From Physocladia obscura (taxonomy: Eukaryota; Chytridiomycota; Chytridiomycetes; Chytridiales; Chytriomycetaceae), in contig JADGJH010000084.1 in the NCBI GenBank assembly GCA_027596945.1, forward strand, positions 1 to 32,702: DNA of 32,702 nt, given 5' to 3'. The translations under genes were made by a program, and so were the position numbers. Below the pieces are notes generated by a model. It did no database searches and had not been told where the DNA came from. It worked only from the letters and a program-made list of their open reading frames with translations. Of the stretch, positions 21,556-32,695 are shown piece by piece (the first letter of the stretch is position 1; each line of letters begins with the position of its first letter).

Positions 21556-21561
21556 TTTATT
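21556..21561 (-). terminator. Poly(A) signal overlapping the SCAPER-like stop codon
   Basis: AATAAA on the coding strand contains the TAA stop (21559-21557), read as a Lys codon followed by the stop. Confidence 0.4.
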
Positions 21562-24500
21562 TTAAGTTTTCCAATTTTTTAACGGCCTGTTCACAAAAAT
21601 CAAATGGAAAAGCATGACCTGCCTTTTCCCACTCTTTATCAAAGACATCAGTTGAAGCTTTTATTTGACAATCACTAACCCACTCCGTGAAGTTTCTTAC
21701 AGCTAAATCTTCTTTCAGTACTTGAATATTTGCTGGATTGCCATGGCAACAAGCCAGCAGGACAGGAAATAAAATAGTTTGGCCACGCGAGTCACAGAAA
21801 TAATGATATGGCAATGACACCAGCATTTTCAATAGAATGAAGCCTTGGCTAAATCGCAGAAGATCTTGATTCGCCAGACATACGTAACATGAATTGCCCA
21901 ACAAGACAAGCATTGAGTCCAGCAACTTCGAACAGTCACAATCACCGCAGATTTCGTATCCGTCCCATTTATAATAGTAACTCATCCAGAAAATTAAAAG
22001 GTGAAAAAATTGTGGCTGTATTCCATCCGAAGCAAGCAATATTTGCATTTTTGAAAGATTCAGCAAACAAAGAGAATTTAACAGGTCAATTCCTTTTGAT
22101 GAAACATGCCAAGTCTGAACTGAAACACGCTCAAGAGCGGCGATTCGTGAAGTTAATCCGTTATGTAGTACCAATGAAACCAGCATGGTTATTAACGCGT
22201 CGAGACCACAACTTTCAAAAGAGTCAGAAATGCATGAAAGCAGAGCAGAATCCGCCTTCCTATATACGAACTGGATGTAAATTTTTCGAACAAAAATAAT
22301 AAAATATCTTACATCATTGAAACAATAGTTTTGAGAAATTTAATTGCATTTAGCAAAAATATGCTCACTGGATCGGGACACAATAACCCGATTGGGCCTT
22401 TTACAATTGAAAAGAAGTTACAAATACAATCAATAGTCTTGATTGACACAATATAGCTGGAAATAGTGTTATTATTTATCCAATTCAATACAAAAATGTA
22501 CCACAAAAAGTCTGCTTTCGCTTTTCTCAACGTTGGACTGTCTTGTGCCTCACGTAAAAACAAATTTGGAAGCAAAATAGCCAAATCACACGATAAATCC
22601 AACCATTCAGGATTTAGGTATTCTTGGAAAGATATTGTGCGAATAAATAATTCTGCTAGTTCTTCAATGCAAATATCCATTGACAATAACAAATACTCAA
22701 TATTGACCAGAGATGCACAACAACGCAAAACAGATTTTAAAATTAGTCGCAGTGAGCTAAATTTTAATATTAAAATTAAAATTATAGTAAGTGAATGAGC
22801 AACAAACCTAGCTGGTAGAAGCAAATTCCCATCATCATCAAGCAACATAAGAGCATTAAATAAAACAGCGAGGCCACCAAAACTGCAAAATGACTCTACG
22901 ACCAACAAATTATCAGAGTTAAGTTCATTCAACAAATAATTCAACGATTGATCGAGTTGAATGACACTTCTAGGAGAATTGTTTTTTTTCAATAAATCAG
23001 ACAGCATTTCCATTGCTATTTTCATAGTATTAGTTCGTTTTGGTAGTTGAACTGACGTGGGTATAAATTCATAATGTACGCAGGCATCTCTCAGTCTCTG
23101 AATTTGATTCTTTTTTAAAATAACAAAATAAAACAAGAAAAAAAAAGAAAAAAAAACCTTTTTCAGTTTTTTAACTCGGCGCTTGACACTTTTTTCCCTG
23201 TCAAATGGTTTAACTATTTTTGCTGTTATTATCGATTCCTGAGAAGTATACTACATTTCAGATTCGACACTAACCATCTTCAAAATTCGATAAGGTCATC
23301 AAATTATTTGTTGCATTGTTGGGGGAATATCCATTCGATTTCTTTGAGTTTTCGAAAACAACTTTTGCATTGAGGTTAGCAATTGCTGCACGTTCTCTCT
23401 TTCTGGCTAACGACTCGTTGTATCGAATAGACCATTTTTCCAGTTTATTTTCAAACCTTTTGCTGAATTCTTGATGCTGATAAAATCTATTAGTTTTCAT
23501 TATTCAATAATACAAGCCTCAAAAACCAAACCTTGATGATTGTTCGTGTTTCTGTAATATTTTTGAGTTCAGAGACACGATTGATCTGAAAGTAAAAGCA
23601 AAATTAATAGTTACATGTAAAAATGTAATAAAACTGAAACTACTTTTGCAATTCGTGCAGCTTCTTTTGATACAGTATGCTCCTTTCTCTCCAATTCAAG
23701 TCGCGATTTTATCTCACGTCTTCTCGCCTCCTCTCGCAGTATTTTCGCCTGCCGTTCTACTTCAAATGAACGACGCCGTTCTAAAGCGGCTTCTTGGTGA
23801 GCTGCAGCTTCGGCAAGCTTGCGCAACCTTTCTTCTTCGATCTCTTGAAGACGTGCTTCGAATACCAAATGGCGTTGAGCAACTTCTATCTTCTTGTTTT
23901 CCTGGCTTTTCGCGCTGAGGAGGGCTATTTCGTCTGTTTTTTGGTTTTCTTCTTTCGCTTTCTCTTGAATTTGCTTAATGAACATGTCCCGTTGCTGCAA
24001 AATATGGAGAATATGGTAAAGGAATGATAGATTTCGAGTCATTATTCCACAAACTTTTTCCGCTTTTGCCTGCTTTTCTTCGATACTATCCTTCAAAATT
24101 TTTGACTGTTTAGCCAAATTGTTTTGTACCGCTAAAACTTGGGTTTTTTCCTTAAAAAATTTTTAATGCGAAAAAAAAAAAAATGAAGAAACAGGCCAAC
24201 CTTTTTTGTTTTCAGCTGAAGTTTTATACTGCGGTCTTGTAGAAAATTTTCACGCATCTCCAGGGCTTTGCGCTTGATGTAGAAATTGCCAATTTAAATT
24301 TAAATTTATGCAGTAGTATAAACAGGCTTTATTTTTACTGACCTGTTTTTGTTCAATCCAATCGATTGTGGTTGTTTTTCGCATCGGTAAAAGACGCGAA
24401 CTCAATGGAATTGAACGATCCCACAATGGCAGCTCTGTTGTTAATTTATTCAAGTTTGTTTGTTCTTGCGTCTGCTTGAATTTTTTGAAATTGTTTTGAA

Positions 24501-30900: not shown

Positions 30901-32695
30901 TATAATGATAATAATAATTGGCAAACAAAACAGAAAATCCAAAACAAAATTAATTTACTTCTCTGCATCCCCGAATATTAGATTCCCAAAACGGACGAAT
31001 GTCATCGATCAAAACGTTTATCAACTTCAAGCAATCACCGAAACCAACCAGAACATATAATCCAGATGGATGCAAAGCAATACTATTTTAAAAATTAATA
31101 CATATAAATCCTTTTTTATCAATTAGCTTTACCTCAACGGTTCATCTTCGAAGTATTTAATGACTTCAAGTGTGTTTTCAAGATAGTTCCATATCCGAAT
31201 AGATTTGTCATTTCCACATGTTGCAATCAATGGCTTTCTCGAGCAAGTATCCATACCAACGATATGTCCGTGATGAAACGGCTGCGTCAGTCTTTCGCAT
31301 TTGATTTCTTCACCCTGAAAAGAAAGAAATAAAAGATACAATTATTGTTGGTTTTGCGCTTTGGAAAACCGACCTTGCTAGAATCTGCATCCAATGGAAC
31401 AATATAAATCTGGCTATCTGTCATTGTACAAACAGCAACATCATCGGTAGGATTCACCGCAATACATTTAACACCACTGCCGCCATTGCTGCCGCCACTA
31501 ACGCCACCACCGCCGCCACCATTACTAACCCCAGAATCCATTAAAAACTCTTTATTTTTCTTATACAGGAAAGCATCGTCCGTTTTTTCGAAAAGCACAC
31601 AGTATCCTGTCGAAGTGCCGGCCATGAATCCCGTAGCAAATGCTGTAATTGTCTGGATTGCAGGTGGCTTTAAGACATTTGGCGACGGGAGAACATATGA
31701 TATTTCAAGTACGAGGTCTCCGGAATCAAAAACGAGAAGTTTAGAGTCTTCCGTGCCAGCAATTACACGGGTTTCAGTGATCCAACAATGACAAAGCAAG
31801 TTCTAAACAATAGAAAAAATATTAATGATCCTAATTATCGGTATTATTTGGTTCTTTTTCAATGCCTTGTCTGGTTTCTGCTGATTAAGAAGTTTAAAGT
31901 TGCCTTCAATGAATTTGAATATGCGAAACATTGATGTTCCAGTCACACAAATTTGAGTGTTTGCTTGGTCAAATGGGTTGCAAGTCATTTGATGCACATC
32001 CGCGCTACTGTTGTTTGTTGATTTAATTGTTCCAAGGAGTTTCGTTTTTTCCCACATCCAGTGATACAAACACCTGTGCAAATTGTAAAATCATTTCAGT
32101 GAAAGAATTGTATTAACAACGATAGTATAATATTCAAACCATTCTGGACCCCCAGATTGAGCTACAATATTCTTTCCATCGTTTGCAAAGGACACTGAAA
32201 TAAATTCCTACATTTTATGTGTTTTATATAACATACAAATGTGAGAAAATCGAAAGTAAAGCAACCTTTGCAGAAATGCCTTCTGGCATAAGAATTTTTT
32301 TTTTCCTTGGACTTTGCAAATCGATAATAGCGATGTAAGGACCTCGTTCTGCACTTTTGACTGCAACAGCGACATAAGTTTCGCCACCGCTACCGCTGCC
32401 GCTAATGCCATTGCCACTATTGCGTGCACTAATTTGAAGTGCGCTGATAGCATCTCCTTCATTTATTGACAGAAATTTTTGAACCTTTTGTTCAAGATTG
32501 AAAAGTACGAGTTGAGATCCAGCAGGATATAGTATAGTTTGCTCGTCAATATATGTCACATTGTTGATAACTTCGTGGTTCAGGCCGAAAACATGGCTAT
32601 GATCCAAGTGTAATGTGGGTTTTTTCTTTTATTAAATTTAATATCTGAGATACAAGCTTAAAATTATACCTTTGGAGTAACACTTGACTGGTCAT
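27916..32695 (-). CDS. CFAP57: CFAP57 (WDR65/FAP57) cilia- and flagella-associated WD40/coiled-coil protein
   Basis: Exons: 32625-32266, 32207-32140, 32073-31866, 31802-31374, 31314-31133, 31082-30959, 30891-30868, 30812-30470, 30411-30376, 30312-30083, 30020-29547, 29427-29128, 29076-28903, 28832-28626, 28554-28277, 28227-28085 and 27986-27916. A first exon 32695-32684 (MTSQ, donor GTGTTA) would give 1220 residues. If the stronger GTATAA donor at 32669 is used, the start lies outside the window. Two WD40 propellers fill residues about 1-670, with IVGMDTCSRKPLIATCGNDK, ALHPSGLYVLVGFGDCLKL and HQGKVKSICWSPDDS. A coiled coil fills about 673-1175, including QDKEKRIYDLKKKNQELE, nearly identical to human CFAP57. 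By family it lies on axonemal doublets and positions a subset of inner dynein arms. It marks a motile 9+2 flagellum. Confidence 0.93.
30868..30891 (-). other. 24-nt micro-exon of CFAP57
   Basis: Acceptor TTTTTTCAG and donor GTAACT flank exactly eight codons (CRFSNGGQ). They correspond to the ECSFSNGGH segment of a WD40 blade in animal CFAP57, so the micro-exon is needed for the fold. Confidence 0.8.
31803..31865 (-). other. GC-AG intron of CFAP57
   Basis: The donor reads AAG|GCATTG and the acceptor GTTTAG (63 nt, phase 0). No GT occurs between the last conserved codons and the in-frame stop that overlaps the acceptor, so a GC donor is the only way to join KPDK to NLLCHCW, as animal homologues require. 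Confidence 0.75.

What the first reader, a model, noticed from the sequence alone, without database searches (positions are those of the whole stretch)
21557..32695. SCAPER-like, MREI beta-tubulin and CFAP57 genes in one same-strand block
Seen: three consecutive minus-strand genes, CFAP57 > beta-tubulin (MREI start, EGEF tail) > SCAPER-like, spaced 181 and 476 bp. Known: in animals TTC5 reads the nascent MREI/MREC tetrapeptide and SCAPER bridges it to CCR4-NOT to destroy tubulin mRNA when free tubulin rises. Inferred: the tubulin gene, the putative feedback adaptor and an axonemal consumer of tubulin may be linked for coordinated expression around zoospore flagellum building or resorption. I know of no description of such a linkage.
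Basis: partly seen in the sequence, partly recalled or inferred. Interest (0 to 1): 0.78.

Follow-up and report, generated by a model that had tools for sequence, protein, structure and literature searches.

The report
Chytrid SCAPER gene beside tubulin, CFAP57
This stretch of a flagellated fungus carries a true relative of SCAPER, a protein that helps animal cells destroy tubulin messages, and its partner genes are elsewhere in the same genome, but the tubulin gene lying next to it looks like a chance newcomer rather than part of a built-in control circuit.

Summary
In detail: CFAP57, an MREI beta-tubulin and a SCAPER homologue lie head to tail on the minus strand, with gaps of 181 and 476 bp. 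The window matches a 32,702-base contig of the chytrid Physocladia obscura. The third gene is a SCAPER orthologue: a profile of chytrid relatives matches human SCAPER at E=2.5e-81. The genome also encodes TTC5, with the SCAPER-contacting lysine K97 kept, and CNOT11. The parts for animal-type tubulin autoregulation are therefore present, though untested.

The proposed functional linkage is not supported. They lie on different contigs in Entophlyctis luteolus and Cladochytrium. So the older pair is probably CFAP57-SCAPER, with the beta-tubulin inserted. It shares upstream blocks with a second beta-tubulin elsewhere that encodes exactly the same protein. TTC5 and CNOT11 are on other contigs. Co-expression was not testable.

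Verdict: a good gene identification and a plausible chytrid autoregulation pathway; the three-gene block is probably family-level gene order plus a gene insertion.

The parts
21557..25746 (-). SCAPER orthologue, 14 exons, 1153 aa; no SCAPER_N domain found
   Evidence: Spliced model; human SCAPER E=4.7e-26, profile E=2.5e-81; no Pfam match over cut-off; only copy found in the genome at E<=1e-5
23275..24474 (-). SCAPER central alpha-helical region (CNOT11-binding region in human SCAPER)
   Evidence: Residues 381-619 align with human SCAPER chain 545-782. F628 and I629 positions are both L; L632 position is K here but L or M in 4 of the 5 other aligned chytrids
21557..23222 (-). SCAPER C-terminal domain (TTC5- and ribosome-binding in human SCAPER)
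   Evidence: Residues 870-1116 align with the human CTD at E=2.9e-11; residues 654-813 only weakly by single sequence, but the profile match spans the whole domain
23158..23193 (-). Basic helix KSVKRRVKKLKK, counterpart of the human ES27L-contacting cluster K867-R878
   Evidence: Alignments; basic in all six aligned chytrid sequences; human numbering checked
21707..21709 (-). Codon of D1104, counterpart of human SCAPER E1338 that faces TTC5 K97
   Evidence: Alignments; acidic (D or E) in 6 of 6 aligned chytrid sequences
26223..27734 (-). Beta-tubulin, 3 exons, 447 aa, MREI start, EGEF-containing tail
   Evidence: Model; Pfam Tubulin and Tubulin_C; 0 of 447 residues differ from the C299 copy
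27872..27894 (-). Upstream block TGTTTTTCAAGCGATAGCACCCC, shared (22 of 23) with the C299 beta-tubulin upstream region; putative promoter element
   Evidence: a 19-base core occurs exactly at these two places in the genome search (control 0)
27809..27825 (-). Second upstream block AAAAAAAGGTTAAATTG, shared with the C299 beta-tubulin upstream region
   Evidence: Exact 17-base match at -91 (window) and -105 (C299) from the ATG
27916..32695 (-). CFAP57 (WD-repeat, coiled-coil axonemal protein), 18 exons, 1215 aa
   Evidence: Model; homologues; only copy found in the genome at E<=1e-10

Best explanation
Three ordinary, separately working genes. SCAPER and CFAP57 are old neighbours within part of the chytrid family Chytriomycetaceae. 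A duplicated beta-tubulin gene, with its own upstream control region, sits between them in Physocladia, most likely by insertion. Independently of this neighbourhood, the genome encodes what is needed for animal-type tubulin autoregulation: TTC5 reading MREI/MREC nascent chains, SCAPER docking on TTC5 and the ribosome, and CNOT11 recruiting CCR4-NOT to deadenylate tubulin mRNA. Shown: gene identities, presence of all three factors, MREI and MREC starts, the CFAP57-SCAPER linkage in some relatives, the shared tubulin upstream blocks. Inferred: that the pathway operates (I would say about 0.6), that those blocks are promoter elements, that the tubulin was inserted rather than lost in relatives, and that the linkage has no regulatory meaning. 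The confidence below is for the gene-order reading.
For: SCAPER. TTC5: C990:6090-8406, human TTC5 E=3.5e-25, TTC5_OB 53.7 bits against a cut-off of 30, K97 and D225 kept. CNOT11 domain: E=3e-24 to 8bfh. Alpha-tubulin on C299 starts MREC, read directly. The SCAPER residue facing TTC5 K97 is D or E in 6 of 6 aligned chytrids and the ES27L basic helix is kept. Merged CFAP57-SCAPER model in C. hyalinus: the first 248 residues of P0004 are 71% identical to the window's CFAP57, and it matches SCAPER over 95% of the query. The two beta-tubulins encode the same protein although 157 of 447 codons differ and dS is about 0.93, and they share two upstream blocks.
Against: Human SCAPER residues that contact the 60S body (R907, K910) and uL23 (R934, R941) are not kept here except R907 to K, and L632 of the CNOT11 interface is K in Physocladia. 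TTC5 D175, needed for tubulin binding in human, aligns with N. The merged model is an annotation, so a tubulin gene inside a long predicted intron of C. hyalinus is not strictly excluded. Contig length shows a shared contig, not adjacency. E. luteolus, whose genus has the closest SCAPER, is listed with CFAP57 on contigs other than the SCAPER contig, so the pair may not be very stable; contig ends could also cause this.
Confidence: 0.75

Rival explanations
1. The block is a selected expression domain: tubulin, SCAPER and CFAP57 are kept together so that flagellum building and the tubulin feedback are co-regulated.
For: CFAP57-SCAPER adjacency or same-contig linkage in 3 of 7 relatives. Four same-strand genes in a row, counting the DUF885 gene.
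Against: No tubulin in the merged C. hyalinus model. The tubulin has an upstream block of its own, found nowhere else in the window at up to 3 mismatches. The identical-protein beta-tubulin at C299 has no CFAP57 or SCAPER beside it in the 7 kb read. Pair listed on different contigs in E. luteolus and C. replicatum. Head-to-tail genes cannot share a bidirectional promoter.
Confidence: 0.06
2. CFAP57-SCAPER is a bystander linkage held by cis-regulatory elements, as proposed for Isl2-Scaper in animals; the tubulin is incidental.
For: Shared neighbourhood in several genera (as above); a precedent in a sponge, where predicted enhancer-like elements lie in Scaper introns beside Islet (passages of PMC5429095).
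Against: SCAPER introns here are 37-75 bases long (coordinates), leaving little room for enhancers; the pair is not on one contig in some relatives.
Confidence: 0.1
3. The SCAPER homologue is present but does a different, tubulin-independent job (for example cell-cycle or ciliary), and chytrids have no tubulin autoregulation. (This competes with the pathway half, not with the gene-order half.)
For: Loss of most 60S-body and uL23 contact residues, L632 to K, TTC5 D175 to N.
Against: TTC5 and CNOT11 are both present, with K97 and an acidic partner residue kept. The parts that human SCAPER needs for autoregulation are retained, while the largely dispensable N-terminus is what differs (PMC10403363 passages).
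Confidence: 0.2

Closest known systems
[quoted passage not shown] structure 8bpo)
   Same: Colinear central helical region and C-terminal domain; ES27L-type basic helix; acidic residue opposite TTC5 K97
   Different: No SCAPER_N domain found by Pfam; 60S-body and uL23 contact residues mostly not conserved; 1153 against 1400 residues
TTC5-SCAPER-CCR4-NOT tubulin autoregulation (PMC10403363)
   Same: TTC5, SCAPER, CNOT11 and MREI/MREC tubulins all encoded in this genome
   Different: Organism is a zoosporic fungus; no functional test; TTC5 and CNOT11 are on other contigs than SCAPER
Isl2-Scaper microsynteny in animals (PMC5429095)
   Same: SCAPER sits in a gene pair shared by several genera
   Different: Partner here is CFAP57, not Islet; introns too short for a similar enhancer-hosting role
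Divergent alpha/beta-tubulin pair on contig C299 of the same genome
   Same: Same beta-tubulin protein and same upstream blocks
   Different: Neighbours are alpha-tubulin and a xylanase-like gene (named by eye), not CFAP57 or SCAPER

Membership tests
SCAPER orthologue | Colinear match over helical region and CTD to human SCAPER, best hit | tested here: met
   (only PDB hit of the profile at E<=0.01)
SCAPER orthologue | SCAPER_N domain (PF16501) | tested here: not met
   (protein). One search (six-frame) found nothing either, but its controls were silent too, so it counts for little. The N-terminal part is largely dispensable for autoregulation in human cells (passage)
SCAPER orthologue | Residues contacting TTC5 (E1338 region) and ES27L (K867-R878) | tested here: met
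   Acidic residue in 6 of 6 and basic helix in 6 of 6 aligned sequences; M1339 and S1340 are L and A here
SCAPER orthologue | Residues contacting 28S rRNA (R907, K910) and uL23 (R934, R941) | tested here: not met
   R907 to K, K910 to M, R934 to Q, R941 to N. The single-sequence alignment is weak there (7.8 bits); the profile alignment has the same register
SCAPER orthologue | CNOT11-binding hydrophobics F628, I629, L632 | tested here: inconclusive
   L, L, K in Physocladia; hydrophobic at all three in Obelidium, MP71, Entophlyctis and Cladochytrium; T, T, N in C. confervae
TTC5 (gene on C990) | TPR region plus TTC5_OB domain, best PDB match TTC5 | tested here: met
Tubulin autoregulation pathway | MREI beta-tubulin and MREC alpha-tubulin N-termini | tested here: met
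   window beta; C299. Third beta-tubulin start on C435 not resolved
Tubulin autoregulation pathway | Free tubulin triggers TTC5/SCAPER-dependent tubulin mRNA decay | not testable with these tools
   Needs an experiment
Conserved three-gene block | Same order CFAP57, beta-tubulin, SCAPER in relatives | tested here: inconclusive
   The one relative where adjacency is visible, C. hyalinus, has no tubulin in the merged model. Elsewhere only contig lengths were seen, so tubulin between the two genes was neither found nor excluded
CFAP57 | Full-length match to named CFAP57 proteins | tested here: met

The most novel reading that the evidence does not exclude
Zoosporic fungi run animal-type TTC5-SCAPER-CNOT11 tubulin autoregulation, used to shut off tubulin synthesis when the flagellum is drawn in and its axoneme dissolved at encystment; the CFAP57-(beta-tubulin)-SCAPER neighbourhood is held together in this family because these genes share a zoospore expression programme.
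Probability: 0.05. Interest if true: 0.75.

Novelty: new member of a known kind. Interest (0 to 1): 0.36.

Why it matters
The autoregulation papers seen here work in animal cells. A chytrid that encodes TTC5, SCAPER and CNOT11, and that belongs to a group known to retract and degrade its axoneme over about two hours (PMC12659703, passages), is a natural place to ask what the feedback is for. If it works, it would place the pathway before the split of animals and fungi. The gene-order claim itself matters less: it shows how an attractive three-gene story can come from an old gene pair plus a duplicated tubulin.

Tried and rejected
Pfam for SCAPER: no match over cut-off; a six-frame search with SCAPER_N rang nowhere, controls included, so it says nothing. 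Upstream block as a zoospore-wide motif: not supported. The 19-base pattern had two exact places, both upstream of beta-tubulins, and one further place at 2 mismatches inside an 893-codon open frame on C399 (control 0). A 13-base core had the same two exact places, but its backwards control also had one match, so that shorter test is weak. The block is not in the SCAPER upstream gap at up to 5 mismatches; in the C435 beta-tubulin locus the only hit was at 5 mismatches and inside the gene. Recent tubulin duplication: rejected, because silent sites and introns have diverged. Gene-order comparison in DNA of other chytrids: not possible, since the DNA collections on hand are prokaryotic, viral, plasmid or E. 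coli and metagenome scans were capped at zero. I used a merged model and exact contig lengths instead. The protein searches scored only the roughly 8,000 candidates sharing most words, so missing relatives prove nothing. A beta-tubulin protein search for linkage was not made, because those proteins would merge in 90% clusters. Structure prediction was not run: sequence evidence was already decisive for identity. The YN00 method failed, so only NG86 is quoted.

Papers: PMC10403363, PMC11570694, PMC12868001, PMC5429095, PMC12659703 and PMC13392243 were seen as found passages only; the other papers were seen only in search listings. The searches for TTC5 with chytrids, TTC5 with fungi and SCAPER with fungi or chytrids listed no title or abstract on SCAPER or TTC5 in chytrids. 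The library lacks most subscription papers and one search was loose (2,837 papers held two of its terms, five shown). The axonemal meaning of the EGEF tail and the importance of TTC5 R147 and D225 are recalled, not taken from a call.
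Full report
What is there. The window matches in length, and in its proteins, a 32,702-base contig of Physocladia obscura (Chytridiomycota, Chytriomycetaceae). It is C84:1-32702 of a 21.76-Mb genome in 1,222 pieces. Three minus-strand genes read cleanly after splicing. CFAP57 is 32695..27916 (18 exons), beta-tubulin 27734..26223 (3 exons) and a SCAPER-like gene 25746..21557 (14 exons). The stated gaps of 181 and 476 bp are exact. The CFAP57 ATG lies 7 bases from the window end, so its promoter cannot be studied here. 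The next gene downstream of SCAPER, a DUF885 protein, is on the same strand too.

SCAPER. Pfam does not recognise the protein. Against PDB sequences it finds human SCAPER (8bpo) at E=4.7e-26, with two significant colinear stretches and a weak one between them. A profile built from six of nine available chytrid sequences (dropped: the deposited Physocladia model, the E. luteolus protein close to that of Entophlyctis sp. JEL0112, and the merged C. hyalinus model) finds human SCAPER alone, at E=2.5e-81. The deposited model P0001 carries a SCAPER name in UniRef (name cut short), so the identification is already in public annotation. That model lacks the last 293 residues of mine, which are the part best matched to the human C-terminal domain. 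No second copy was found.

Partners in the same genome. A TTC5_OB hit led to a six-exon gene at C990:6090-8406 encoding 662 residues. It matches human TTC5 at E=3.5e-25, and K97, whose mutation abolishes SCAPER binding in human cells (passages of PMC10403363), is K here, as D225 is D. D175, needed for tubulin binding (passage of PMC11570694), aligns with N. CNOT11's DUF2363 domain is on C129 and matches human CNOT11 structures at E=3e-24. Alpha-tubulin on C299 starts MREC (read). In the SCAPER protein, the residue matching human E1338, which faces TTC5 K97, is D; it is D or E in 6 of 6 aligned chytrids, and the basic ES27L helix is kept. Against this, the 60S-body and uL23 contact residues are mostly not kept, and one of the three CNOT11-contact hydrophobics is K in Physocladia. 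So all three adaptor parts are present, with mixed conservation of contact residues. Whether the pathway works is not shown.

Gene order elsewhere. Of seven SCAPER proteins from other genomes (a capped search), one, Chytriomyces hyalinus P0004, is a merged gene model. Its first 248 residues are 71% identical to the C-terminal part of the window's CFAP57 and the rest is SCAPER. The two genes are therefore adjacent and in the same order there. Introns of the three window genes are 37-119 bases (coordinates), so a 1.5-kb tubulin gene hidden inside the merged model is unlikely, though not excluded. In Chytriomyces sp. MP71 and Obelidium mucronatum, CFAP57 and SCAPER come from contigs of identical length (74,481 and 179,367), so they very probably share a contig, at unknown distance. 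In Entophlyctis luteolus (SCAPER contig 178,595; CFAP57 contigs 40,575 and 9,787) and Cladochytrium replicatum (728,450 and 672,885) the lengths differ. For C. confervae only a more distant CFAP57 is listed, on another contig (67,699 against 37,541), and for Entophlyctis sp. JEL0112 none; I count both as unknown. Score: linked in 3 of 7, not on one contig in 2 of 7, unknown in 2 of 7. Entophlyctis has the SCAPER closest to Physocladia's among the five aligned (55%), so the pair is not universal even in the family.

The tubulin. The genome has a second beta-tubulin on C299, divergently paired with alpha-tubulin, and a third at 81% identity (main exon) on C435. The window and C299 copies encode the same 447 residues although 157 codons differ, with NG86 dS about 0.93; introns are in the same places but have diverged. 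Their upstream regions share a 23-base block (22 of 23) at -160 and -194 and an exact 17-base block at -91 and -105. None of 2,000 two-base-block shuffles reached the best local alignment score. A 19-base core of the first block has only two exact places in the genome search, both here, with a control of 0; a 13-base core also has just these two, but its control has one, and the tool warns that a missing match does not prove rarity. The window's beta-tubulin therefore seems to carry its own promoter in the 181-bp gap after CFAP57. The simplest history is a duplicated tubulin gene with its promoter placed between CFAP57 and SCAPER.

How likely by chance. With about nine genes in the window (my count), the genome holds roughly 6,000. 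A given gene then has about a 0.13% chance of having one of the four alpha/beta-tubulin genes as a direct neighbour. That is low for a story named in advance, but this one was chosen after reading the sequence, among many possible stories, so it is not evidence of selection.

Mechanism and verdict. I take the three genes as separately controlled. SCAPER most likely acts with TTC5 and CNOT11 on tubulin mRNAs, as in animals; chytrids retract and degrade their axoneme on settling (passages of PMC12659703), a moment when free tubulin could rise and the feedback would matter. The link to CFAP57 is gene order shared by part of the family, with a possible but unproven cause; animals have a different conserved SCAPER pair with Islet, associated with predicted enhancer-like elements in Scaper introns (passages of PMC5429095).

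Noticed in passing
window 26223-27734 and contig C299 (L014:3744-5265): Two beta-tubulin genes encode exactly the same 447 residues although 157 codons differ silently (NG86 dS about 0.93) and introns have diverged: strong purifying selection on the whole protein, tail included.
   Followed up: yes
L014:3454-3743: Alpha- and beta-tubulin on C299 are divergent with a 290-bp shared upstream region holding the same 23-base block.
   Followed up: partly
window 21557-25746: The deposited gene model for this SCAPER (P0001, 901 aa) starts further upstream and ends early, lacking the last 293 residues of my model.
   Followed up: partly
window 3744-7075, minus strand: Open frames with an FHA domain, a long polyglutamine run, RING-like cysteines (by eye) and a zf-PARP domain just over cut-off; probably one gene, not spliced here.
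   Followed up: no
window 7176-7883, plus strand: An open frame of the YecM family (Pfam E=3.8e-17), a family I recall as mainly bacterial, in a chytrid contig.
   Followed up: no
listing: Several chytrids list two CFAP57 proteins (for example Spizellomyces punctatus, Geranomyces variabilis, Batrachochytrium dendrobatidis); only the window's was found in this genome at E<=1e-10, so the assembly may be incomplete or the second copy lost.
   Followed up: partly
P0002: The Entophlyctis luteolus SCAPER is deposited as 'Sentrin-specific protease 3', apparently a misnaming.
   Followed up: no
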